A DNA stretch of 34,760 bases from Synergistaceae bacterium (GTDB lineage Bacteria > Synergistota > Synergistia > Synergistales > Synergistaceae): NCBI GenBank assembly GCA_031269875.1, contig JAISYM010000079.1, forward strand, positions 1-34,760, read 5' to 3'. The notes below the pieces were generated by a model. That model worked only from the letters and a program-made list of their open reading frames with translations. It was not told where the DNA came from and ran no database searches. This document shows, piece after piece, positions 2,580 to 34,760 of the stretch; the stretch's first letter is position 1; every line of letters begins with the position of its first letter. The translations under genes were made by a program, and so were the position numbers.

Positions 2580-2656
2580 TGGCGTGCCCGCCGGGATTCG
2601 AACCCGGGACCTTTGGCTCCGGAGGCCAACACTCTATCCAGCTGAGCTACGGACAC
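2580..2656 (-). tRNA. tRNA-Arg (anticodon CCG), CCA encoded
   Basis: All four helices fold on the minus strand: acceptor GTGTCCG/CGGGCAC (one G-T pair), D-arm GCTCAGCTGGATAGAGT, anticodon stem TTGGC/GCCAA around loop CTCCGGA with anticodon CCG, and T-arm CCGGG-TTCGAAT-CCCGG. Discriminator G and CCA follow and are encoded (2582-2580). The tRNA reads CGG arginine codons. The mobile-element operon lies beyond its 3' end, the side used by tyrosine integrases that target tRNA genes, but only one possible attachment sequence is visible here. Confidence 0.95.
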
Positions 2657-2671
2657 ACGCGCAACGGGAGT

Positions 2672-2700
2672 ATCCTAGCTTTACAAGGCGTTTGAGTCAA
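2672..2700 (-). promoter_or_regulatory. Promoter of tRNA-Arg
   Basis: On the minus strand, -35 TTGACT (2700-2695), a 17-nt spacer and -10 TAGGAT (2677-2672) lie about 16 nt upstream of the tRNA 5' end. Spacing and consensus are both good. Confidence 0.75.
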
Positions 2701-2730
2701 GGGGAAAAAATCGCAATGGAAAAAATCGGA

Positions 2731-2770
2731 AAAAATTGAAGGTGCGGGGGGCGTTTTTGTTGTCCCCCGC
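2731..2770 (-). terminator. Probable terminator of rnpB
   Basis: On the minus strand, GCGGGGG (2770-2764) pairs with CCCCCGC (2750-2744) around a 13-base A-rich loop, followed after about 9 nt by a TTTTTT run. It starts 9 nt past the RNase P RNA 3' helix. A shorter hairpin (CCGCG-TTTA-CGCGG) partly competes for the same bases. The T-run is further from the stem than usual, hence the modest confidence. Confidence 0.5.
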
Positions 2771-2778
2771 GTAAACGC

Positions 2779-3092
2779 GGAAGCATCTCGTAAGCCGGGT
2801 TCTGTCGTGTCCAGTCATTTATCTGAGCGATCGTACCCGGGAGTCAGCGGGCAGCCTCATCCTCCCCTATTCGATCTTGCTCCGGGTGGGGTTTGCCAGG
2901 CACGCGCGTCACCGCGCGTCCGGTGAGCTCTTGCCTCGCCTTTTCACCCTTGCCGGAAATCGCTTCCGGCGGTATTTTTTCTGTGGCACTTTCCTTGGGT
3001 TCGCACCCACAGGAATTTCTCCTGCACCCTGCCCTTTGGAGCCCGGACTTTCCTCCGTCCTTTGGGGGACAGCGACTGGATGAGATACTTCC
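2779..3092 (-). ncRNA. rnpB: RNase P RNA, bacterial type A
   Basis: The catalytic RNA of RNase P, which trims the 5' leaders of tRNA precursors. The minus strand carries the hallmark GAGGAAAGTCCGGGCTCC near the 5' end and ACAGAACCCGGCTTACGAGA at the 3' end. The two ends pair as an 11-bp P1 helix, GGAAGTATCTC (3092-3082) with GAGATGCTTCC (2789-2779), one G-T pair. The length, about 314 nt, is usual. AGAGGTAA-like P4 elements sit inside the conserved blocks. It lies between tRNA-Arg and typA and is transcribed divergently from typA. Frames crossing this interval on both strands are not genes. Confidence 0.95.
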
Positions 3093-12710: not shown

Positions 12711-13663
12711 ATAACGACCTCTCCTGGGGTTTTTTCGGCTCCGGAGGCTTTGGGGCGAGGTGTCTTGCCCTGCTCTCGGCGTGGCGCCCTCCATCTTGGA
12801 TAGTGACTTCCCCTCAAAGACCGGCAGGCCGCGGCAAACGGCTCACGCCAACCGCGGTGGACGCCTTTGCCGGCTCTGAGCTGCAAGGCGTCCCTTTGGT
12901 CCGTTCGGGTAACGCTTCCGCTGACGCGGATGTTCTTGCGCTTCGGGAAAAAATCCGGGTCGATTTTTGCTTCGTAATAGATTTCGGCCAGTTGATCACA
13001 GAACCGATACTTGGCTTTGAGGAAAGCGTCGGGTGCCTCAATATCCACCCGTCGCTCCTGCCGGAATACAGGGGAGGCGCGCCGATACAGAGGGCGCTCA
13101 TGGACTGCCGCCCAAAGACCGGGGTCACGGTTTTCAAACTTGCCGCCGGGATGGATTCCGGCCCGATCTTATTGCGCAGGGAAATTACCGTAAACGCCCG
13201 CGATAACGCCGAAACGCTCATGGAACGCGCCGCGATTGCCGGCGCGTCTTCATTTATAGAACACATATCCAGCCGCTTAGAGGAGAGTTGGGCGTTTGAA
13301 GCGCAGGACGAGTCCGCCGCGACGTACGCTCCCAAGATTCGGCCGGAAGAGGAGATGATCCGCTGGGAGCGCTCATCTTCAGAGATATGCGGTCTGGTGC
13401 GCGCCCTCGCTCCGAAACCGGGTGCGTGGACGACAGCGCGAGATAAGCGGCTCCGTGTTTTGTCCGCCTTCCCTCTGACGCCGGACGCTGAATCTCGGGA
13501 CGCGCCAGGGACGCTCTATGGTGTGATAGAGGGCGGGGTTGCGGTCGGGACGGGAGAGGGCAGTATAATACTTCGCGAAGTTCAGCCGGAAGGCAAAAAA
13601 ATACAGCGCGCGCTTGACTGGTGGAATGGCCTCCGAGCGGCGGGTGGGGAGCGGTTATCGTGA
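12707..13663 (+). CDS. fmt: Methionyl-tRNA formyltransferase
   Basis: Transfers a formyl group from 10-formyl-tetrahydrofolate to initiator Met-tRNA. 318 residues, full length. The catalytic triad is present as N112 and H114 in LNIHPSLLPEYRGGAP and D150 in GMDSGPIL; the loop at 38-47 (RPAGRGKRLT) stands where relatives carry the PKGRG tRNA-contacting motif. The C-terminal OB-like domain (about 215-318) includes RALAPKPGAWT. The start is GTG 12707, overlapping the def stop, with GGAGG about 10 nt upstream. Its own stop overlaps the next gene in the same GTGA fashion, indicating translational coupling through the operon. Confidence 0.95.
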   Translation: MNNDLSWGFFGSGGFGARCLALLSAWRPPSWIVTSPQRPAGRGKRLTPTAVDAFAGSELQGVPLVRSGNASADADVLALREKIRVDFCFVIDFGQLITEPILGFEESVGCLNIHPSLLPEYRGGAPIQRALMDCRPKTGVTVFKLAAGMDSGPILLRREITVNARDNAETLMERAAIAGASSFIEHISSRLEESWAFEAQDESAATYAPKIRPEEEMIRWERSSSEICGLVRALAPKPGAWTTARDKRLRVLSAFPLTPDAESRDAPGTLYGVIEGGVAVGTGEGSIILREVQPEGKKIQRALDWWNGLRAAGGERLS

Positions 13664-14232
13664 CGTACATTATTGACAAGCTAGAGGATCTGACCGAAAC
13701 TTGTATGGAAAGCAGCCGTATTTACGAGGGGAGAATACTGAACGTGCGCGTGGACCGCGTGAAGCTCCCCTGCGGAAAAAACGCCTGCCGGGAGGTGGTG
13801 GAGCACCTGCCGGCTGTGGTCATCTTGGCCGAAAACGAGAACCAAGAGGTACTCCTGATCCGACAGTACAGGTACGCTTCCGGACAAGCGCTTATCGAAC
13901 TGCCCGCGGGCATATCCGAGCCCGGAGAGGATTTTGCCGATTCGGCGATTCGTGAACTCCGCGAGGAGACGGGCTGGAAACCGTCCAAAGTCGAGCGGGT
14001 AGCGGAATTTTTCACGTCTCCGGGCTTCTCTGACGAACTTCTTACACTCTTTTACGCAACCGGATTGTCACTGGATAGCTTGCCGCAGGACGATGACGAG
14101 CTCGTCCTTGCGCGCTTCGCTTCCCGGCAGGAGGTCGAGCGGCTGATGGAGCGCGGTCTTGTGAAGGACGGCAAGACGCTCTTCGGGCTCTGCTGGTGGC
14201 TCTATACGCTCAATATGAGGAATACCAGGTGA
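13660..14232 (+). CDS. NUDIX hydrolase, ADP-ribose pyrophosphatase type
   Basis: 190 residues. Hydrolyses a nucleoside diphosphate linked to another moiety, most likely ADP-ribose. The NUDIX box occupies 84-106 with Gly84, and RELREETGW supplying the metal-binding Glu residues; LIRQYRYASG just before it and the Pro after LIELPAG are typical of the ADP-ribose branch. An N-terminal strand region (SSRIYEGRILNVRVD) matches the dimerisation sheet of that branch. The start is GTG 13660, overlapping the fmt stop with GGGGAG at about 8 nt; an ATG at 13621 would overlap fmt more. The stop overlaps the recombinase start, again as GTGA. Confidence 0.9.
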   Translation: MTYIIDKLEDLTETCMESSRIYEGRILNVRVDRVKLPCGKNACREVVEHLPAVVILAENENQEVLLIRQYRYASGQALIELPAGISEPGEDFADSAIRELREETGWKPSKVERVAEFFTSPGFSDELLTLFYATGLSLDSLPQDDDELVLARFASRQEVERLMERGLVKDGKTLFGLCWWLYTLNMRNTR

Positions 14233-15230
14233 AACAGAAGCAGGCCGGCGGAAATGACGCCGCCTGTCAAGTGGTCTCCGGTTTCCTGGACTATATGACC
14301 TTGGAGCGCGGAGCAAGCGAGAATACCGTGAAGGCGTACAGGACGGACCTGCTTCAATGGATGGCTTTCTGCTCAAATGAGGGCAAACGTCACTACCCCG
14401 TGGAGCCGGAGCTCTTGGCGCGGTATCTGCGCCGGCTTCTCCTCGACGGCAAATCGTCCGGCACAAGGGCGCGAAACGCCGCTACGCTGCGCGCTTTTTC
14501 GAAGTATCTCCTTTACGATGGGATCGAGGAGTCTATACGTCCGCTGGGACAGCTTCCGAAGAGGGAAAAAACCCTTCCGCAGATTATGACCGAGGGCGAA
14601 ATAGAGCGTCTGCTGGACGGCTGTGAGAAGGGCGCTCGATCGGCGCTAGATGAGAAGGCGCTTGCGGCGGACAAAAAGAAAACGGCCATAGGCATGAGGG
14701 ACAGGGCGATGATCGAGATGGCGTACGACTGCGGGCTGCGGGCGAGCGAACTCTGTTCCATCGAGCTTTCAAATATTGACGAAACGGGCGGAGTGATGTA
14801 CGTTAAGGGTAAGGGGGGAAAGGAGAGGATAGTACCGTATGTCGGCGCGCTCAGGGGGGTCATCCGCCGGTACTTGGAGGAAGCCCGCCCAATTTTGGCC
14901 GGCTCGGTAGAAACTGCCTATTCGAAATATCTCTTTTTATCGGCGCGCGGAAGGCGGATGTCGAGGCAGGAGCTGTGGAATATCGTCCAACGGAGGGGCA
15001 GGGAGGCCGGAATCGCGAAGGCGCGGCTTCACCCGCACGTTTTGAGGCACTCGTTCGCCACGCATCTTCAGCGAAGAGGGATGGACTTGCGCACATTGCA
15101 GGAGTTACTTGGGCATTCTTCAATAGCGACTACTGAAAAGTACGCTCATCTTGACACAGAACTGAGGGATATCTATGACAGTTTTCACCCACGCGCAAGA
15201 TCTGATAAAGACGCTAAAAGAGGTGACTGA
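14229..15230 (+). CDS. xerD: Tyrosine recombinase, XerC/XerD type
   Basis: 333 residues. Probably resolves chromosome dimers at dif by strand exchange. N-terminal SAM-like core-binding domain (about 14-100; ERGASENTVKAYRTDL), then the catalytic domain with the complete set R171 (GLRASEL), K195 (KGKGGKER), H270 and R273 (HPHVLRHSFATH), H296 (LGHSSI) and nucleophile Y305 (TTEKYAH). About 15-20 extra residues before GMRDRAMIE (GARSALDEKALAADKKK) are longer than in E. coli XerD. Only one Xer gene is visible, so the C or D choice is not settled. The start GTG 14229 overlaps the NUDIX stop. Its chromosomal operon context argues against a phage integrase. The 3' end overlaps no confident start of the next gene. 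Confidence 0.88.
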   Translation: MKQKQAGGNDAACQVVSGFLDYMTLERGASENTVKAYRTDLLQWMAFCSNEGKRHYPVEPELLARYLRRLLLDGKSSGTRARNAATLRAFSKYLLYDGIEESIRPLGQLPKREKTLPQIMTEGEIERLLDGCEKGARSALDEKALAADKKKTAIGMRDRAMIEMAYDCGLRASELCSIELSNIDETGGVMYVKGKGGKERIVPYVGALRGVIRRYLEEARPILAGSVETAYSKYLFLSARGRRMSRQELWNIVQRRGREAGIAKARLHPHVLRHSFATHLQRRGMDLRTLQELLGHSSIATTEKYAHLDTELRDIYDSFHPRARSDKDAKRGD

Positions 15231-15243
15231 GGAAGGCATCGGA

Positions 15244-16083
15244 ATGCTGAACGCCGAGAAGACGGCTGAAACGCTTGCCGCAATAGGCCGCAGGACGACG
15301 CTGCGCCCCAAAATAGGCATAATTCTTGGCTCCGGTCTCGGCGGAGTCGTAGAGATGATCGAGAACTCGGTCGCGATTCCCTACGATGAAATCCCTTACT
15401 GGCCGCGAACGACAGCTATCGGACACGCCGGACGCCTCGTGATCGGCACTATAGAGGGGGTCCCTGTCGTCGCGATGCAGGGCCGCGTCCACTTCTACGA
15501 AGGCTATACTATGGAAGAAATCACTTTCCCGGTACGTATATTTGGAGAGATGGGCGTCGGCGGCCTGATAGCGACGAACGCAGCCGGGGGCGTGAATCTC
15601 TCTTACACTCCCGGAGACCTTGTCGTAATCAAAGACCACATCAACTTCATGGGCACTAACCCTCTTATAGGCTCGAACAATGACAAATGGGGGCCGCGCT
15701 TCCCGGACATGACTTACGCTTACGACCAGGAGTATATACGCGCGCTCATGGAGGTCGGAGAGGAAGAGGGCGTAAGGCTCCGGAACGGCGTCTACATAGC
15801 TTTCTCTGGACCGTCATACGAGACGCCGGCCGAAATACGCATGAGCAGGACGCTGGGGGCCGATCTCGTCGGCATGTCGACCGTCCCGGAGATAATCGTC
15901 GCCAACCACATGGGCATGAGGGCAGCGGCGATCTCCTGCGTCTCAAACTACGCGGCGGGCGTAACCGCTCAAAAACTGCATCACCAGGAAGTCCTGGACG
16001 CTATGAATGACGCGGCGGGCAGGGTGATCGTGATTATACGCGGTTTCCTCAGAAAAATCGCGCAAAATGCCGGGCATTATTGA
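15244..16083 (+). CDS. punA: Purine nucleoside phosphorylase (trimeric type)
   Basis: Phosphorolytically splits inosine and guanosine to base and ribose-1-phosphate in purine salvage. 279 residues, typical of the low-mass trimeric family. Motifs: GSGLG (29-33, phosphate), H61 in TAIGHAGR, GRVHFYEGY (80-88), NAAGG (112-116), GPSYETPAEIR (189-199, with the purine-binding Glu), VGMSTVPE (209-216) and CVSNYAAG (232-239, with the base-binding Asn). The start ATG 15244 follows GAGGAAGG at 7 nt and 13 bases after the recombinase stop; ATG 15175 would run through the recombinase 3' end. Next to a pyrimidine phosphorylase it forms a nucleoside-salvage pair. Confidence 0.93.
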   Translation: MLNAEKTAETLAAIGRRTTLRPKIGIILGSGLGGVVEMIENSVAIPYDEIPYWPRTTAIGHAGRLVIGTIEGVPVVAMQGRVHFYEGYTMEEITFPVRIFGEMGVGGLIATNAAGGVNLSYTPGDLVVIKDHINFMGTNPLIGSNNDKWGPRFPDMTYAYDQEYIRALMEVGEEEGVRLRNGVYIAFSGPSYETPAEIRMSRTLGADLVGMSTVPEIIVANHMGMRAAAISCVSNYAAGVTAQKLHHQEVLDAMNDAAGRVIVIIRGFLRKIAQNAGHY

Positions 16084-17389
16084 GTTTATAGAGCGAAAGC
16101 GAGACGGCTTCGCGCATACCGCGGAGGAGCTTGCGGAGTTTGTGACGCTTGTCCGGGACGGAGCGATACCGGACTACCAGATATCCGCGTGGCTGATGGC
16201 CGTCTTTTTGAAAGGCCTCACCGAGCCGGAACTCGTGGCGTTTACTGACGCGCTCGCCTCATCCGGTGAAATGGTTCGTTTTTTAAAGACTCCTTCCGAC
16301 GGAGGCGGGACGTTTTTGACCGTTGATAAACACAGCACCGGAGGGGTAGGCGACAAAACGACGCTTATATGCGCGCCGATTGCCGCCTCGTGCGGGCTTC
16401 GCGTCGCGAAACTCAGCGGAAGGGGACTCGGCTTCACGGGCGGAACGGTTGACAAACTGGAGTCGATCCCAGGCATGAACATGCGCCTCTCCACCGATCA
16501 ATTTTTAAAACAGGCGGATGAGATAGGGATAGCGCTTTCCGGTCACTCCCTGGCGCTCGCTCCGGCTGAGGGCAAATTTTACGCCCTCCGCGACGTGACC
16601 GGCACAGTGCCGTCCCTTCCACTGATATCGAGCAGTATCGTCTCTAAAAAAATCGCCGGAGGAGCTGACGCGTTCGTTTTCGACGTAAAATGCGGAAGCG
16701 GCGCGTTTATGAGGAGCATAGAGGACGCAAAAAGGCTTGCGGAAGCTCTTGTCAACCTCTCCAGGGCGCTCGGCAAAAAAAGTTCATACCTCGTTACGGA
16801 TATGGAACAGCCGCTCGGTGAGTGGATTGGAAACGCGGTTGAGGTTATCGAGGCGATAGAGGTTCTATCCGGCCGCGGCCCGCAAGATACCAGGGAACTT
16901 AGCCTCGCCCTTGCGTCTCGCATGTTGGTGTTCGGAGGCGCAGCGCGGGACGACGAATCCGCGTTGGACGCGGCTCGGAAAGCGCTTGACGGGGGAGATG
17001 CCCTCCGAAAGTTTGCCTCCATGATTCACGCGCAGGGCGGCGCTTCGGTGTGCGGCGATCCGTCAATCCTGCCGCGGGCGGGGAAAAAAAGGGTAATAGA
17101 GGCGCCGCGCTCCGGGGTTGTAGAGAGGATGGATGCGCGCGCGGCCGGAGTCGCGGTGCGCGCGTTAGGCGGCGGACGCATCCGCAAGGACGACCATGTA
17201 GACGTCTCCGTCGGGCTCAGAATCCTAAAGAAAGTCGGAGACCGCGCGGATAAGGGCGAACCACTCATTGAAATTTACTACAACGACGAGGGCCTTTTTA
17301 ACGGCGCAAAGACATATATAGGACAGATCAGCTCCGTTTCAGACACCGCGAAGCCGGACGCGCGCCCGCTGATTTTGCGCGCGCTGTGA
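16067..17389 (+). CDS. Pyrimidine-nucleoside phosphorylase / thymidine phosphorylase
   Basis: 440 residues, the full length of the family. Phosphorolyses thymidine, uridine or deoxyuridine to free base and (deoxy)ribose-1-phosphate. The family signature SGRGLGFTGGTVDKLESIPG spans 117-136 and the phosphate-binding KHSTGGVGDK spans 88-97; FDVKCGSGAFM (205-215) is the conserved metal-loop segment. The C-terminal alpha/beta domain (about 345-440) includes GGGRIRKDDHVDVSVG. The sequence is closer to the broad pyrimidine (pdp) than to a strict deoA type as far as can be judged by eye. The start ATG 16067 overlaps the preceding gene by 17 bases with no strong ribosome binding site, so coupling is likely. 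Confidence 0.92.
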   Translation: MPGIIEFIERKRDGFAHTAEELAEFVTLVRDGAIPDYQISAWLMAVFLKGLTEPELVAFTDALASSGEMVRFLKTPSDGGGTFLTVDKHSTGGVGDKTTLICAPIAASCGLRVAKLSGRGLGFTGGTVDKLESIPGMNMRLSTDQFLKQADEIGIALSGHSLALAPAEGKFYALRDVTGTVPSLPLISSSIVSKKIAGGADAFVFDVKCGSGAFMRSIEDAKRLAEALVNLSRALGKKSSYLVTDMEQPLGEWIGNAVEVIEAIEVLSGRGPQDTRELSLALASRMLVFGGAARDDESALDAARKALDGGDALRKFASMIHAQGGASVCGDPSILPRAGKKRVIEAPRSGVVERMDARAAGVAVRALGGGRIRKDDHVDVSVGLRILKKVGDRADKGEPLIEIYYNDEGLFNGAKTYIGQISSVSDTAKPDARPLILRAL

Positions 17390-17413: not shown

Positions 17414-17917
17414 ATGAAGAGCGCTACGGAGATATCCAATGAGATAGAAAAATACCTGCCGGTCGTGATGCGCGAGGCGAGAAAACTTTCAGGCAACGAC
17501 CTGTTCACGCGGGAGGATTTGACGCAGGAGGGGATAATGGCCGCCCTCCGCGCTATGGACTCCTACGATCCGGCTCGCGGCAGCCTTGAGGGTTACGTTA
17601 GGACGTGCGCGAGGAACAGGATGATATCGTATCTCAGACGCTCTTGGCATGAGTATGCGGTCGACGACGATATCTTAGACGCGCGGGTTTCGGGCTCGAT
17701 CGCGTCAAACGGAGGATTTGGGGAGCCCGAGGAGAGGATCGAGATAAACGAATCCCTTTCGAAACTGATAGAAGAGCTGAGCGCGTTCGAAAAAAACGTG
17801 CTGTACGCCTACCTTAGCGAGGGAAGTCTCTCCGGCGCGGCTCTGCTCCTCGATTGCGAGCGAAAAAAGGCCGACAACGCCCTGCAGCGGATCAGGAACA
17901 AGGCAAGGGCGATGTGA
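17414..17917 (+). CDS. Small sigma-70-family RNA polymerase sigma factor
   Basis: 167 residues. Region 2 spans about 12-80: YLPVVMREARKLSGNDLFTREDL, then QEGIMAALRAMDSYDP (the QEG/L core-binding segment) and GYVRTCARNRMISYLRR (the -10 recognition helix). Region 4 spans about 120-165, with FEKNVLYAYLSEGSLSGAALLL and the HTH ending in ERKKADNALQRIRNKAR. Size and organisation resemble the SigH-like or ECF group rather than a housekeeping factor. No anti-sigma factor gene is beside it; the next gene is an exported binding-protein-like protein. It follows the phosphorylase by 24 bases. I see no good ribosome binding site for ATG 17414, so the start is tentative. Confidence 0.85.
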   Translation: MKSATEISNEIEKYLPVVMREARKLSGNDLFTREDLTQEGIMAALRAMDSYDPARGSLEGYVRTCARNRMISYLRRSWHEYAVDDDILDARVSGSIASNGGFGEPEERIEINESLSKLIEELSAFEKNVLYAYLSEGSLSGAALLLDCERKKADNALQRIRNKARAM

Positions 17918-17963: not shown

Positions 17964-18878
17964 ATGAACAGCCAGTTTTGGCGGTCAAACCGCCGGAGGA
18001 TTCTGTCCGCCTCAGCGGCCGCGCTCTTTTGCTGCGCCCTTTTCACAGCTCCTTCCGGGGCCTTTGATCCTATAATCAACCCCAACAAGGTCGTGCGTAT
18101 TTCGGAGTTCGCAAACTCGCAGGCCGCGCAACTTCTGCTCGTGGTGCTGAACAGCTCTTTTTTGGCGCTCACGGAAGTTCCGCCGACGTGGGAAACATTG
18201 CGGTCGGAGACTTTGGAGGAGAGGGATGAAATCCTGCGCGCGAGCGTCATAGGAACATTCGACATGATTTTCACGAGCGATCGCGAAGCGGTTGATGACC
18301 TGTTCGATCAGGGTCTTCTGCAAGGCTTCTTTCCAGTATTTTCCGAGGAGATCGTGCTGGTAGGCCCGGTCTCGTCTGGCGACGCCGCCGGGATCGGCGC
18401 GGCAGGCGTTATGGGACGAATTTTCCGCGAGGGGACTCATTTTTTCTCCCTCATTACGAACGAATGGTCCTTAAAGGCGGAGTACGCCCTCTGGGAAGCC
18501 TCCGGCATAGAGGATCCCGGCCTTAACAAGAATTATGTGCAGTCGAGCAGGGACGATGTAACGGCTATGTTTCAGGCCGGCGACGAGGGGGCTTTCTTGC
18601 TGGTCGGCGAGGGTTCGTACGCCGCGTACCTTAACGCGCAGAGCTCGTCGCCGGTGCTGGAGAAGGTCGCCGGAACCGGCGTCTACAGAAAAAGTTACGT
18701 ATGCCTGGTCAAAAACTCCGGTTATAGAAAAGACCGCGCGCGGATAGCCGCCAAACTGGCGTCGTGGCTTATGAGCGACGAAGCTGGAATAGTCGTCGAT
18801 TCGTTCGATATCGCAGGCGTGACGCCTTTCCGCAGGACGCCCCTGTTTGCGGAAAAGCGGTCCGGCGGCGCGCCTTGA
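17964..18878 (+). CDS. Exported TupA-like substrate-binding protein with altered ligand site
   Basis: 304 residues with a signal peptide (about 1-33, ending SGAFD). The mature part aligns by eye with the tungstate-binding protein TupA: KVVRISEFANSQAAQLLLVVL matches the family's N-terminal strand and helix, GTFDMIFTSDREAVDDLFDQG matches the xxVDVVLTHxxxxE segment, VFSEEIVLVGPV matches MYNDFVVIGP, and KAEYALWEASGIEDPG with EGAFLLVGEGSYAAYL matches the C-lobe. The TTTST oxyanion-binding motif seen in the tupA gene at the right end of this window is replaced by ISEFANS, so tungstate binding is doubtful. No permease or ATPase gene is beside it. GAGAGGGG lies 12 nt before ATG 17964. Confidence 0.75.
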   Translation: MNSQFWRSNRRRILSASAAALFCCALFTAPSGAFDPIINPNKVVRISEFANSQAAQLLLVVLNSSFLALTEVPPTWETLRSETLEERDEILRASVIGTFDMIFTSDREAVDDLFDQGLLQGFFPVFSEEIVLVGPVSSGDAAGIGAAGVMGRIFREGTHFFSLITNEWSLKAEYALWEASGIEDPGLNKNYVQSSRDDVTAMFQAGDEGAFLLVGEGSYAAYLNAQSSSPVLEKVAGTGVYRKSYVCLVKNSGYRKDRARIAAKLASWLMSDEAGIVVDSFDIAGVTPFRRTPLFAEKRSGGAP

Positions 18879-18978: not shown

Positions 18979-20613
18979 ATGACAGCGACACAGCGCAGTT
19001 TACCCCCTTACGGAGTGACAGGGGCACGCAAAAAGCTCCTTCTTTTAACGATCTTAGCTCTTTCCGTTTTAATGGCAGCCGGCGCGGACGCCGCTTCGCG
19101 GGCGTCGCTCGCGATTTCGCCGCTCGTGGGCGACGACCCAGCCTATTTTTACGCCGACTTCCAGGACGCGGGCGAGATATCGCGGCGTCTTCAGAAATCG
19201 GAGACGCTGCGATTCATCTCCAAGCAGGCCGGCGAGGCGCTGAAAGGGATCCCCGCACGTGAAATTTCTCTCATGTTCTCCGTCTCCGGTGATGAGGCGC
19301 CCTCCTTTCAGATGGCATGGACACTCGAAGACGGCGGGAGCGAAATCCTCGGGAGGATAGCGTCGGCCAATGCCTCCACGGCCGAATTGGACAAGTTCTT
19401 CGGCAAGATTTGGAGCAGTGTCGCGGTAGAGGCCCCCGACCATGACGTCCCATTCTATCGGTTGAATCCATTCGGTTTTTATTTTTCCTCGAACGGAGAA
19501 CTGCTGGTATTCGCCAACAGCATAGAAGGCGTCAAAAAATCACTGCTGGCCACACTGAACGGCTATAAGCGCTTTTCCCCAAAGACGAAGTCTAACGGGC
19601 GCAATCTGATCCTTTGCGGGCTCGGGAAAGAGTATTCAGCCATCTTCGCGAATGAGTTCGCGGCCATTGCCGGGTTTCCGAGCGGCGCGCCTTTTCCGGA
19701 AAATATCTCTGTCGAAATGAACGCCGCCCTGCGGCCCGGAGGGTGGGAGCTCGATATTTTCACGGACGCGATCAAACCGCTTTATGGCGACGCCTTTTTC
19801 GAACACAGCGTCTCAAAGCCCACCGGGTCGTTCCGCAGGGCTGGTGGAGGAAGGCTCGTGGCCGCTGTCGACGGGATTGTGAACGGCGACTTGTTAGACG
19901 GCTACAATTTTATGCGGCTTCTTTCTTATTACGTCGGCGTGAAGGGCGAATGGGACGACCAGGCCCTCCAGAAATTCGCCGAGGGGGACACGGCGGAATA
20001 TATCAGGTCCGCGCTTTCGGCGGCCGGCCGGCTGAACTTCGCCGTTACATCGGCGCCTGACGGCAGACTGACAGCTTATGCCGCTGTTTTGGACAGCGCC
20101 GGGGATTGGAAGAGGGCGGGCGACGCGCTCTCTAAAGCACAGAGCGCCCGCCGTAAGACAAATTCTGATGAGGCCGTGAACGCGAAGGAGATACCTGACG
20201 ATGATTGGAACCACGTCTTCAGTATTGAGACCAAGGAAGCCGAATCGGGCAGTCCGGTGAGTGTCACCGCGGCCTTCGGGGATGACCGCGCGTTTATCGG
20301 TTTTATGCCGCCGAATGACCTGAAAGAACCATTCAGCGTGAAGTCGGAGTTTTACGAGAATCTGACGAAGAATGAGGGTGCGCTTGAAATTGTGTATGCG
20401 GATATGAAATTCCTGAGGCAGATTTTAGCGACGCGGCGGCATAGCGATCCAAGCGCGAGCTATGACTCGACTCTCACGGCCATAGCCACGATCCCCTTTT
20501 TGGATATCAGGGAAGTGGGTGCCCTGACCCTGTCACCGGAACATTTCAGGTTTATCTTCAAGACCGGGTGGCTCGATTTTGAGGATAGGGAATACGTCAA
20601 TACTATTATGTAA
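18979..20613 (+). CDS. Uncharacterised exported protein
   Basis: 544 residues with a signal peptide (basic KK at 18-19, hydrophobic core about 20-36, cleavage near ADAAS). The mature protein has repeating alpha/beta segments such as YFYADFQDAGEISRRLQ, FYRLNPFGFYFSSNGE and LVFANSIEGVKKSLLATLNG. That layout recalls DUF3352-type proteins, where a soluble domain repeats the pattern 'aaYxyvxdxxxlxxxL', but the resemblance is by eye only and weak. No catalytic motif, metal site or Cys pair is seen. The start ATG 18979 follows AAGGAAG at 7 nt; the upstream frame overlaps the previous gene. It has its own promoter. Confidence 0.8.
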   Translation: MTATQRSLPPYGVTGARKKLLLLTILALSVLMAAGADAASRASLAISPLVGDDPAYFYADFQDAGEISRRLQKSETLRFISKQAGEALKGIPAREISLMFSVSGDEAPSFQMAWTLEDGGSEILGRIASANASTAELDKFFGKIWSSVAVEAPDHDVPFYRLNPFGFYFSSNGELLVFANSIEGVKKSLLATLNGYKRFSPKTKSNGRNLILCGLGKEYSAIFANEFAAIAGFPSGAPFPENISVEMNAALRPGGWELDIFTDAIKPLYGDAFFEHSVSKPTGSFRRAGGGRLVAAVDGIVNGDLLDGYNFMRLLSYYVGVKGEWDDQALQKFAEGDTAEYIRSALSAAGRLNFAVTSAPDGRLTAYAAVLDSAGDWKRAGDALSKAQSARRKTNSDEAVNAKEIPDDDWNHVFSIETKEAESGSPVSVTAAFGDDRAFIGFMPPNDLKEPFSVKSEFYENLTKNEGALEIVYADMKFLRQILATRRHSDPSASYDSTLTAIATIPFLDIREVGALTLSPEHFRFIFKTGWLDFEDREYVNTIM

Positions 20614-20685
20614 GAGGTTTTGCCGCGCTTATACTGTGCAAATATGATTTCAAGCTGGTATGACAACTATACGGGAGGTCGTAAT

Positions 20686-21450
20686 ATGAGAAGTAAATTT
20701 AAAATCTTTTTTTGCGTTCTTTTCGCTGTGGTGTTCGCGTTATGCTTCACCGCGGAGAGCATGGCGGCCAATCAATATGAGAAGGCAATGGCAAGGTGGA
20801 GCAGACATGAGGAGTACCGCAACGATCTGGGGGGCGTGTTTTCCGTAAAAGCGACGCTTTATACGGTCGAGTACATTAACAACCTCATGGAGAGCGAAGC
20901 GGAGAAAAACCTCTGGACGGCGAGCGAGCTCGAGGATTACAAGTATAACTTCCTCAACAGCGTCAAAATCGACGAGTACCTGCCCATTTACCTGGAACTC
21001 GAAGAGCTGGGGCCGACAGCGCACATGGCGCCCTTTAACGAGATGATACACCTCTGGGTCGGAAATAAAAAATACGCGCCTGCCGAGTACGATCAACGCT
21101 TCAATTTCCCTCTTCAGGGCAAGAGGGACGGCATAGTCTATTTCCCGAGGTATGACGAGAAAACGGGGGCTTCTATCTTTAACAGGGACACAACGCTGCG
21201 ATTTGTGATGGTATCCGGCGCAAGCCCCGTTCTGGACTCGAAGGAGGTTCGCCTCAACTGGGACGTGAAGCAGGAGAATGTCGGCGTCCCGACCAGCGGT
21301 ACAGCCGCCGACAGGATGGAGATAGACCGCCTTCTCAGGAGAATGGAGAAGCTCTCCGGGGAGAAAGCGGAGTTGGAAACACAACTGGAAAATAAAAAGA
21401 ACGAGATAGACGAAATTAACGCCCGCATAGATGAGCTCCGGCGGAATTAG
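20686..21450 (+). CDS. Uncharacterised exported protein with C-terminal coiled coil
   Basis: 254 residues with a signal peptide (1-28, cleavage near SMAAN). The middle part is mixed and rich in Tyr and Glu (YTVEYINNLMESEAEKNLW; LPIYLELEELGP), with a probable beta-rich segment at about 140-195. The last 45 residues are a strong heptad coiled coil starting at DRMEIDRLLRRMEKL and ending in DELRRN, suggesting oligomerisation or a partner. I do not recognise the family. The start ATG 20686 follows GGGAGG at 7 nt. The gene ends 13 bases before the pfkA start and shares a transcript with it on spacing grounds. Confidence 0.75.
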   Translation: MRSKFKIFFCVLFAVVFALCFTAESMAANQYEKAMARWSRHEEYRNDLGGVFSVKATLYTVEYINNLMESEAEKNLWTASELEDYKYNFLNSVKIDEYLPIYLELEELGPTAHMAPFNEMIHLWVGNKKYAPAEYDQRFNFPLQGKRDGIVYFPRYDEKTGASIFNRDTTLRFVMVSGASPVLDSKEVRLNWDVKQENVGVPTSGTAADRMEIDRLLRRMEKLSGEKAELETQLENKKNEIDEINARIDELRRN

Positions 21451-28438: not shown

Positions 28439-29461
28439 ATGAAGCGCTTTGCGATCATCTCTGCCGCCGTATTTTTCTTGGTTTTCGCGACATTTTCCGG
28501 GCGGTCATTCGCCGCGGATGATAATAACGATCCTGAAAGGCTTCCGCTGCAGGGCCTGGAAAAGGTGGAGAGCATCGTTTACGGCTCGCCCGGCACTGGC
28601 GGGCTGCTCCTTCGCCTTTCAAAAGTAGAGCGCGATCTTTTCGGGATGGAACTGCCCGGCAGTCTCACGGAGAGGCAGACGGCGCTCGAGAACTTTGTCG
28701 AAAAGGGGAATTCCGGCCAGCCCTCGCTCCTTTTCAAGACCGCCATCGCGGAGTGGGTCACCCTTAAAAGGGTTAATTCGGCGATGTCACTGATCGATAG
28801 GGTGAATACGCTCGAACAGACGCTTGAAGGCGAACCGCAGATTGGCGCGCTGTCGGCCAGAGTCGAGAGGCTCATTTCAAAGCTCATGCCAAACGGTGTA
28901 AGCGCTGTTTCGGTGAGCGTGCCCGCCAATACCGTCATGAAAACTAAATTTATAAACACGCTGACTGTCCGTAACGTAAAAAAAGGCGACTCGGTCGCGC
29001 TTGAAATCACGGAGGATTGCGTAATAGGCGGTTCGCTCGCGGCGGCAAGAGGCAACAGGCTATTCGCGGAGGTCACGAAAGTGCGGATGCCTCGGAGTTT
29101 CGGACGCCCCTCCGAGATAGAGGTCGGGTTTAAGAATATTGAATTTATCGACGGATCGACAGCGGAAGTCTTTATAGGCCCGGAGTCGAAAAAAGCTATG
29201 GAGGTCGACTCCGCGACGATAGGCGCTGCCGGCGCGAGCGTGGCGGGGGCCGTCCTTCTCGGGCCGGTCGGACTAGCGGGCGGTTTCCTCGTCCGGGGGA
29301 GCGATAAGCAGATCAAGGAAGGTACTTTGGTTTTCGTGGAAACTTCCGCGGCTTCGAGCATTATGGGGTATCAAATCCCGGCGCTCGTCCTTCCGGAAGT
29401 TGTGGACTCCACGTCGTCTTCTCCGTCCGGAGTAGAGCCCGGCGTAGATGTCTTCGAATAA
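28439..29461 (+). CDS. Uncharacterised exported protein upstream of lptC/lptD
   Basis: 340 residues with a signal peptide (1-26, ending SFAAD). A charged helical part (about 35-150; LPLQGLEKVESIVYG, NSAMSLIDRVNTLEQTLEG) is followed by a beta domain (about 161-248) with SVPANTVMKTKFINTLTVR, EDCVIGGSLAAARGNRLFAEV, PRSFGRPSEIEVGFKNIEF and DGSTAEVFIG. That pattern ('VxxGxxVPKGT ... GRPGxIxIxFxxI') recurs in many bacterial exported proteins of unknown role. A glycine- and alanine-rich hydrophobic stretch lies at about 262-286, then a Ser/Pro-rich tail. ATG 28439 follows GAGGAGGAA at about 10 nt. It overlaps the next gene by 14 bases. Confidence 0.75.
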   Translation: MKRFAIISAAVFFLVFATFSGRSFAADDNNDPERLPLQGLEKVESIVYGSPGTGGLLLRLSKVERDLFGMELPGSLTERQTALENFVEKGNSGQPSLLFKTAIAEWVTLKRVNSAMSLIDRVNTLEQTLEGEPQIGALSARVERLISKLMPNGVSAVSVSVPANTVMKTKFINTLTVRNVKKGDSVALEITEDCVIGGSLAAARGNRLFAEVTKVRMPRSFGRPSEIEVGFKNIEFIDGSTAEVFIGPESKKAMEVDSATIGAAGASVAGAVLLGPVGLAGGFLVRGSDKQIKEGTLVFVETSAASSIMGYQIPALVLPEVVDSTSSSPSGVEPGVDVFE

Positions 29462-30632
29462 GACTCGATTTACGGTTAACCGCCGCGCGCTCCTGGCGGT
29501 CATTGCCGCGCTGGCGCTCTTTGCCCTTCCGGCCGCGGCTGACGACAGGAGCGACGCTTTGGCGTTGCTCGACCAGCGAACCGCAATCCGCTGGGGAGAC
29601 GACAACCTGACGTGGGTGGTTCACTATACCGACAGATTTGTAGATTTATGGGTGAAATCCGAGGCGGCTCGGCAAAGGATGACCGCCGCGCAGGAAGACG
29701 CTTACCGAAAATCATTTACGGATGAACTTAGGACGAACGCCGCCACCGCCATACTGCTTTCCGTTCACGCGTTCGGTCAGGAGCCTCTCTCTTTGGCGCC
29801 TCTTTCGAAGAATATCGCGCTCCTTGACGCGTCAGGCAAGCGGATAAGCCCGATAGCTTTTGAAAAGAAACTCGACGGCCCTCTGTCAGGCCTCATGCAG
29901 GGGCTGGTGTTCTTCCCAAAACAGGAGAGCGGCGACTTCAAGATTGCGGTCAAGGGATTGACGAGGGAAGGAGAGACCGTTTTCTCTTTTTCGGGTCAAA
30001 ACGCGCCGCAGGCCATTGCGACGGCTGTTCAGGGCCGGACAAGCCAGCCAAGCCAGCTAAGCCAGCAAAAACCTCCGGTGCCGCAGACAAAGGAGACCAT
30101 CGTTAAAATTCCGACCGCGAAGCCAGCCGCGCCAATAACGCCGCAGCCGCCGAACTCGCCAAAAAATCCGGAACCTCCCGAGCGGGCAAAATCCGCCGAG
30201 CCGGCACCTGAGATATTTCCGCCCGCTGCCCCCAACGTGCCGGCGGCGCCCGAATTGGCGCCTCCGGTGATTTTGTACCCGTCTGATGATGAAAAGATCC
30301 AAGAGCCGCAGCAAACGCAGACGCGCTCAACGTCAAACGCGGCCCGCGCGGAGGCGCTAGACTCGTATCTCCGGGCCTGGATAAACGGGGACGTCGACAG
30401 GATGTACTCTCTCTTGTCGTCAGAATCTCAGGGCAGGATATCGCGCGAGCTTTTCACGCGGGAGATCCTGTCCGACGGTTTTCGCAAAGGGCTCAAGGAG
30501 GGCTACAAGGTCAACTGGCAGGGGGATTCGGCGCAGGTAACGGTCTCCAGACGGCTGCTCTTTATGAAGACGCTTGACAGCAAGCGGATTAATTTCGTGG
30601 AGGAAAACGGTTTAAATCGTGTATCGTGGTAA
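29448..30632 (+). CDS. Uncharacterised exported protein with Pro-rich linker and NTF2-like C-terminus
   Basis: 394 residues with a signal peptide or anchor (about 12-32, AADDRSD after it). An N-terminal domain (35-185) includes DNLTWVVHYTDRFVDLWV and ALLDASGKRISP. A linker at about 195-281 is rich in Pro, Ala and Gln (SQPSQLSQQKPPVPQ; APITPQPPNSPKNPEPPE) and could span the periplasm. The last 95 residues (ALDSYLRAWINGDVDRMYSLL ... VNWQGDSAQVTVSRRLLF) have the helix-then-sheet plan of NTF2-like/DUF4878 domains. Function is unknown. ATG 29448 overlaps the upstream stop; its own stop overlaps the lptC start by 14 bases. Confidence 0.75.
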   Translation: MSSNKTRFTVNRRALLAVIAALALFALPAAADDRSDALALLDQRTAIRWGDDNLTWVVHYTDRFVDLWVKSEAARQRMTAAQEDAYRKSFTDELRTNAATAILLSVHAFGQEPLSLAPLSKNIALLDASGKRISPIAFEKKLDGPLSGLMQGLVFFPKQESGDFKIAVKGLTREGETVFSFSGQNAPQAIATAVQGRTSQPSQLSQQKPPVPQTKETIVKIPTAKPAAPITPQPPNSPKNPEPPERAKSAEPAPEIFPPAAPNVPAAPELAPPVILYPSDDEKIQEPQQTQTRSTSNAARAEALDSYLRAWINGDVDRMYSLLSSESQGRISRELFTREILSDGFRKGLKEGYKVNWQGDSAQVTVSRRLLFMKTLDSKRINFVEENGLNRVSW

Positions 30633-34404: not shown

Positions 34405-34760
34405 ATGAGTAAGAAGGCAAGAAGTTTCAAACAGGCGTTTTTTTTCGCGGTATCCGCCACAATCGTGCTTCTGTTCGTTGGAATAGCGTTTTCGGCAGAT
34501 CCGGTTCTCAAAATGGCTACAACGACGAGCACCGACAACACGGGGCTATTAGATTATCTCGCGCCTATTTTCAAAACTGACGCAGGTGTCGAACTTCAGT
34601 GGGTATCCGTAGGAACGGGCAAAGCCCTCGAATATGGGCGCAACGGAGACGTAGACGTCGTTCTTACGCACGACCCCGAATCGGAAAAAGCCTTCATCGA
34701 CGGGGAATTCGGCGTCGAGCCGAAGCAAGTAATGTACAACGATTTCGTGGTGATAGGCCC
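34405..34760 (+). CDS. tupA: Tungstate ABC transporter substrate-binding protein (partial, 3' end off window)
   Basis: 118 residues visible. Signal peptide about 1-31 (VGIAFSADP). The mature start VLKMATTTSTDNTGLLDYLAP contains the TTTST oxyanion-binding motif (39-43) of TupA; WVSVGTGKALEYGRNGDVDVVLTHDP and VMYNDFVVIGP follow as in the family. TupA captures tungstate in the periplasm for the TupBC transporter, supplying tungsten cofactor enzymes typical of anaerobes. The start ATG 34405 follows GGAGG at about 9 nt. tupB and tupC would be expected just beyond the window. Confidence 0.93.
   Translation, partial: MSKKARSFKQAFFFAVSATIVLLFVGIAFSADPVLKMATTTSTDNTGLLDYLAPIFKTDAGVELQWVSVGTGKALEYGRNGDVDVVLTHDPESEKAFIDGEFGVEPKQVMYNDFVVIG

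What the first reader, a model, noticed from the sequence alone, without database searches (positions are those of the whole stretch)
17964..18878. A TupA paralogue whose tungstate-binding motif has been rewritten, with no transporter
Two proteins in this window share the TupA fold: the true tupA at 34405 and this one. The segments around VDVVLTHD/FDMIFTSD and MYNDFVVIG/VFSEEIVLV align by eye, but TTTSTDN is replaced by SEFANSQ, and no permease or ATPase is adjacent. It follows a small sigma factor gene. This suggests a solute sensor, a different ligand, or a structural periplasmic protein rather than tungstate uptake.
Basis: partly seen in the sequence, partly recalled or inferred. Interest (0 to 1): 0.6.

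Follow-up and report, generated by a model that had tools for sequence, protein, structure and literature searches.

The report
Orphan TupA-like periplasmic protein, tungstate site lost
This gene encodes a secreted relative of the bacterial tungstate-binding protein TupA that has lost the known tungstate-contacting residues and has no transporter beside it, and is kept as a lone protein in one lineage of Synergistaceae, so it has most likely taken up a new, still unknown job; this is a known kind of event in a new protein.

Summary
ORF 17964-18878 is a 304-aa exported protein with the TupA fold. Alone it is below every family cut-off. A profile of 12 orthologues hits crystal TupA 5my5 (E=1e-20), and an AlphaFold model built from those orthologues alone also matches TupA (Foldseek 5e-12).

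Orthologues occur in 20 of 53 family genomes, all Synergistaceae, and form one clade (100/99). In the 21 sequences TTTS, H59, T124 and D170 are replaced in all, R118 in 20. Near-invariant glutamates stand at the old site. dN/dS is 0.17-0.34, so it is under selection. Fifteen of the 20 genomes have no detectable TupA or TupB, so the protein does not depend on TupBC.

The sigma-factor link is mostly inherited synteny. The sigma gene ends the nudix-xerD-punA-(pdp) array in ten loci from other Synergistia families that have no such protein there. The protein also persists in four genomes where no sigma gene was found.

Verdict: a lineage-specific, repurposed orphan binding protein, not tungstate uptake. 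Ligand or partner is unresolved, and cleft conservation is only weakly above average. Interest is modest.

The parts
17964..18878 (+). CDS of the orphan TupA-like periplasmic protein (304 aa)
17964..18062 (+). Sec-type signal peptide, residues 1-33 (positive n-region, hydrophobic core, S-G-A before FDP); no lipobox cysteine
   Evidence: read from the sequence; orthologues keep a charged start, hydrophobic stretch and small-residue end; helix 4-28 in the model; no signal-peptide predictor was available
18102..18122 (+). Rewritten lobe-A motif, residues 47-53 SEFANSQ, aligned with TupA ATTTSTD; end of strand 45-49 and the following loop
18276..18278 (+). S105, at the place of TupA H59 (G/S/D in the clade)
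   Evidence: site from PMC5517513
18450..18452 (+). L163, at the place of TupA R118 (L in 16 of 21)
   Evidence: R118E abolishes binding of tungstate and molybdate in TupA (PMC5517513)
18468..18470 (+). S169, at the place of TupA T124 (V/S/I/L/A in the clade)
18585..18587 (+). E208, invariant in 21 of 21 (R, Q, H, K or L in TupA)
18606..18611 (+). G215-E216, at the place of TupA D170-R (G 19/21, E 20/21)
17414..17917 (+). Small sigma-70-type factor gene, upstream neighbour; position ancestral in the order
13621..17389 (+). Upstream array: nudix hydrolase, xerD-like recombinase, purine-nucleoside phosphorylase, pyrimidine-nucleoside phosphorylase (names by reading of the sequence and synteny, not by family search); mostly shared by orthologous loci
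18979..20613 (+). Downstream exported protein of about 540 aa, no family match; found with confidence only in g1, g13 and one g12 genome, so not a constant partner
20620..21450 (+). Exported protein, widespread in the family, usually downstream, also present in genomes without the TupA-like gene
34405..34760 (+). True tupA (first 118 codons, cut by the contig end), keeps TTTSTDN and THD

Best explanation
It is a neofunctionalised orphan solute-binding protein. Shown: the TupA-type (type II periplasmic binding protein) fold, a common origin of the clade, loss of the known tungstate-contacting residues, purifying selection, a near-constant genomic place directly after the punA/pdp(/sigma) array, and presence in genomes without detectable tupA and tupB. 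Inferred: it is exported to the periplasm as a soluble two-lobe protein and works without an ABC permease, either by closing on a different, non-oxyanion ligand (the cleft has lost its arginine and gained conserved glutamates, so a neutral or cationic ligand is likelier than an anion) or by docking to an envelope protein. I lean slightly to a retained but changed ligand site, because E48, N51, G215 and E216 at the old site are nearly invariant.
For: Homology: (Pfam SBP_bac_11 in 5 of 12 orthologues, best 5.1e-7). Single clade 100/99. Site loss: TTTS, H, R, T and D are fixed in the Synergistia TupA of the alignment and replaced in the clade. dN/dS 0.17-0.34. More acidic mature chain, median pI 4.7 against 5.7 for TupA. 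Same locus in nearly every genome; the start lies within a few bases of, or overlaps, the upstream gene in several. No TupA and no TupB in 15 of 20 genomes with it. Precedent for orphan SBPs repurposed away from transport: mycobacterial LpqZ and FecB, PMC12802301.
Against: Positions equivalent to the TupA site are only slightly more conserved than the rest (mean 0.70-0.73 against 0.59; random draws reach this in 5-10%), so a retained ligand site is not established. Lack of TupA/TupB does not exclude an unlinked permease of another type. The genomes are drafts, so some absences may be gaps. The better AlphaFold model (pLDDT 90.5) used TupA rows in its alignment and is not independent of the homology claim; the orthologue-only model (pLDDT 77) left the first strand unresolved.
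Confidence: 0.65

Rival explanations
1. It is still the receptor of an ABC importer encoded elsewhere, with a new ligand.
For: It keeps the two-lobe fold, an export signal, and conserved residues in the C-terminal lobe; unlinked receptors that share a permease are common (general knowledge).
Against: No permease or ATPase was recognised next to the gene in the orthologous loci examined; the most obvious partner, TupB, was not detected in 17 of 20 genomes with it. Other permeases were not surveyed.
Confidence: 0.2
2. It is a sensor or regulator working with the neighbouring sigma factor.
For: Sigma gene and this gene are adjacent in 15 of the 16 genomes that have both (an extra gene lies between them in G002); Fisher p=4e-8 in 53 genomes, not corrected for relatedness. 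Stop and start nearly touch in several genomes.
Against: The sigma gene occupies the same place in ten loci of other families without this protein there, and the protein persists in G014, G024, G030 and G171 without a detected sigma gene. No anti-sigma or transmembrane linker lies between them; a periplasmic protein cannot touch a cytoplasmic sigma factor.
Confidence: 0.1
3. Structural or chaperone-like envelope protein: the cleft is a relic and the surface binds another envelope protein.
For: Weak conservation of several cleft positions; precedent in PMC12802301.
Against: E48, N51, G215 and E216 at the old site are nearly invariant.
Confidence: 0.3
4. A decaying TupA copy on its way out.
For: Long stem branch and fast evolution: 65% identity between congeners against 97% for pfkA.
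Against: Open frames in 20 genomes, dN/dS 0.17-0.34, invariant new residues.
Confidence: 0.03

Closest known systems
TupA, tungstate-binding protein of TupABC (NF041772; PDB 5my5, 3lr1, 3kn3)
   Same: Fold, length, order of secondary structure, conserved scaffold residues such as D100, G134-P135, Y191, W268, F281, F289; top hits of profile and fold searches
   Different: TTTS, H59, R118, T124 and D170 replaced; no TupB/TupC beside it; 13.6 bits against a cut-off of 400
TupA2, the second TupA-like protein beside tupA-tupB in many Synergistia (group T2 here)
   Same: Another TupA-derived paralogue with a changed TTTST segment (S-T-I-G-P in 12 of 12)
   Different: Keeps the histidine, R118, T124 and D170 equivalents, lies next to the transporter, and is a separate branch
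ModA / YvgL-like molybdate receptors and FbpA-type ferric-binding proteins
   Same: Type II periplasmic binding protein fold
   Different: Weaker fold matches than TupA
Orphan SBP-like lipoproteins LpqZ and FecB of mycobacteria (PMC12802301)
   Same: SBP fold without transporter, reported as repurposed for envelope biosynthesis
   Different: Other SBP families; lipoproteins; partners AftA and AftB known

Membership tests
TupA (tungstate receptor of TupABC) | Score above the NCBIfam equivalog cut-off (400 bits) | tested here: not met
   13.6 bits. The cut-off is strict: only one of the Synergistia genomes reaches it, so this row alone is not decisive
TupA (tungstate receptor of TupABC) | TTTS motif in lobe A | tested here: not met
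   TTTS in none of 21; E in 21 of 21 and N in 20 of 21 at its first and last position; TTTS in 35 of 35 Synergistia TupA
TupA (tungstate receptor of TupABC) | R118, T124, D170 and H59 equivalents | tested here: not met
   L163, S169, G215, S105; the R118 position keeps R in one of 21 orthologues, the others keep the TupA residue in none
TupA (tungstate receptor of TupABC) | tupB/tupC alongside | tested here: not met
TupA (tungstate receptor of TupABC) | Binds tungstate with very high affinity | not testable with these tools
   needs purified protein
Type II periplasmic binding protein fold, TupA-related | Two-lobe fold and profile similarity | tested here: met
Orphan (transporter-less) SBP | No permease or ATPase next to the gene across orthologues | tested here: met
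   neighbours are housekeeping genes homologous to those of the window
Orphan (transporter-less) SBP | Functions without any importer | not testable with these tools
   other permeases not surveyed; needs genetics

The most novel reading that the evidence does not exclude
The oxyanion pocket of a TupA duplicate was inverted in charge to bind a cation or cationic metabolite, giving a permease-free periplasmic receptor or buffer found only in this lineage of Synergistaceae.
Probability: 0.12. Interest if true: 0.5.

Novelty: new variant of a known kind. Interest (0 to 1): 0.3.

Why it matters
It is a clean natural case of a transport receptor that lost its ligand site and its transporter yet stayed under selection. 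It also warns annotation pipelines: profile similarity to TupA here does not mean tungstate uptake, and 15 of 20 genomes with this protein have no detectable TupA or TupB. The sigma neighbour shows how inherited gene order can look like a functional pair.

Tried and rejected
Pfam and NCBIfam with the single sequence: below threshold. Scan of 84,980 species for close relatives: only three Synergistaceae MAGs, whose contigs match genomes already found. Alternative receptor for TupBC: rejected as a general role, TupB not detected in 17 of 20 genomes. Sigma-SBP module: downgraded after finding the sigma gene in the same place without the protein. Constant partnership with the downstream 540-aa protein: rejected, present in few genomes. 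Literature searches for TupA in Synergistota or a sigma-SBP pair gave nothing relevant. Pocket geometry could not be measured because the structure tool gives no coordinates. Gut or termite origin of the MAGs is suspected but was not confirmed.

Full report
What is there. The window is contig C94 of a Synergistaceae draft genome (named relatives are Synergistaceae MAGs). ORF 17964-18878 (+) encodes 304 residues beginning with a signal-peptide-like segment and no lipobox cysteine. Upstream, on the same strand, are genes read as nudix hydrolase, xerD-like recombinase, purine- and pyrimidine-nucleoside phosphorylases and a small sigma-70-type factor; downstream are two exported proteins and pfkA. 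A true tupA begins at 34405 and is cut by the contig end.

Homology. The single protein is below all cut-offs. Orthologues were found in 20 of 53 genomes of the family and nowhere else in the 183 genomes of the order, apart from a distant partial relative in G020 of the same family. Their profile hits TupA 5my5 at 1.2e-20 and other TupA chains; the TupA model hits orthologues at up to 5.9e-15; five of 12 match Pfam SBP_bac_11. The AlphaFold model from orthologues alone (pLDDT 77) matches 5my5 at 5.4e-12, TM 0.77. With TupA rows added it reaches pLDDT 90.5 and 3.6e-16, TM 0.83, but that second model is not independent evidence. In the tree the orthologues form one clade with 100/99 support, on a long stem, apart from TupA and from a second TupA-like group.

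The binding site. In D. alaskensis TupA the site is H59, T9-T11, S12, R118, T124 and D170, and R118E abolishes tungstate and molybdate binding (PMC5517513). These are fixed in the Synergistia TupA of the alignment. In the clade they read E, C/F, variable, N for TTTS; G/S for H59; L for R118 in 16 of 21; V/S/I for T124; G for D170; the next residue, R in TupA, is E in 20 of 21; and E208 is invariant. The mature chain is more acidic (median pI 4.7 against 5.7). Tungstate binding of the TupA kind is therefore very unlikely; a neutral or cationic ligand is an inference from charge, not a result. Site positions are only slightly more conserved than average (0.70-0.73 against 0.59, reached by 5-10% of random draws), so a retained ligand site is a lean, not a finding.

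Selection and context. dN/dS between closer pairs is 0.17-0.34, so this is not a decaying copy. Fifteen of 20 genomes with the gene have neither TupA nor TupB detected, and TupB is not detected in 17. Drafts may hide some copies, but genus g17 lacks both throughout. TupB was found in no genome lacking TupA, so the two searches agree with each other.

The sigma neighbour. Sigma gene and this gene co-occur (16 both, 4 and 2 alone, 31 neither) and often nearly touch. But an orthologous sigma gene stands at the end of the nudix-xerD-punA-(pdp) array in ten of ten loci sampled from other families, with no SBP homologue there. In eight of these ten (L192-L196, L198-L200) a tRNA-Sec was predicted in the same stretch, directly behind the sigma gene in seven and 2.4 kb away in L193. 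G008, within the family, shows the same arrangement. The simplest reading is that the SBP gene was added later behind a resident sigma gene. It is kept in G014, G024, G030 and G171 where no sigma gene was found, and in G015 sigma and SBP stay with pdp while w20620 and pfkA lie on another contig. G033 has two copies; the second groups with other g17 species and may be contamination.

Verdict. A new, lineage-restricted, TupA-derived orphan binding protein. What it works like: a repurposed SBP, as reported for LpqZ and FecB (PMC12802301). Whether it is TupA: no, several defining features were tested and not met. Function remains open between an altered ligand and a protein-docking role.

Noticed in passing
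L192-L200; G008:C1:1440651-1440743; family-wide: tRNA-Sec lies behind the punA-pdp-sigma array in most other Synergistia sampled, where this lineage has the SBP gene. A confident tRNA-Sec (over 65 bits) was found in only 1 of 20 SBP-bearing genomes (G167, 7% contamination) but in 27 of 33 others, suggesting loss of selenocysteine in the lineage.
   Followed up: partly
L053:6223-7074 and group T2: A second TupA-like protein follows tupA and tupB in many Synergistia; its TTTST segment reads STIGP in 12 of 12 but the histidine, arginine, threonine and aspartate of the site are kept.
   Followed up: partly
window 20620-21450 and 29448-30632: Two exported proteins of the window share a domain (E=2.6e-9); the first is widespread in the family and multi-copy in G016 and G018.
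   Followed up: no
window 2583-3091: tRNA and bacterial RNase P RNA on the minus strand, next to minus-strand ORFs 218-2131 that look by eye like part of an integrated element.
   Followed up: no
L036:5693-7003: In G002 an aminotransferase-like gene (by eye) lies between the sigma gene and the SBP gene.
   Followed up: no
L012:1483-2193 (G020): A distant relative, cut by the contig end, at another locus; TTTST reads QIHDS, and its D170 equivalent is kept.
   Followed up: partly
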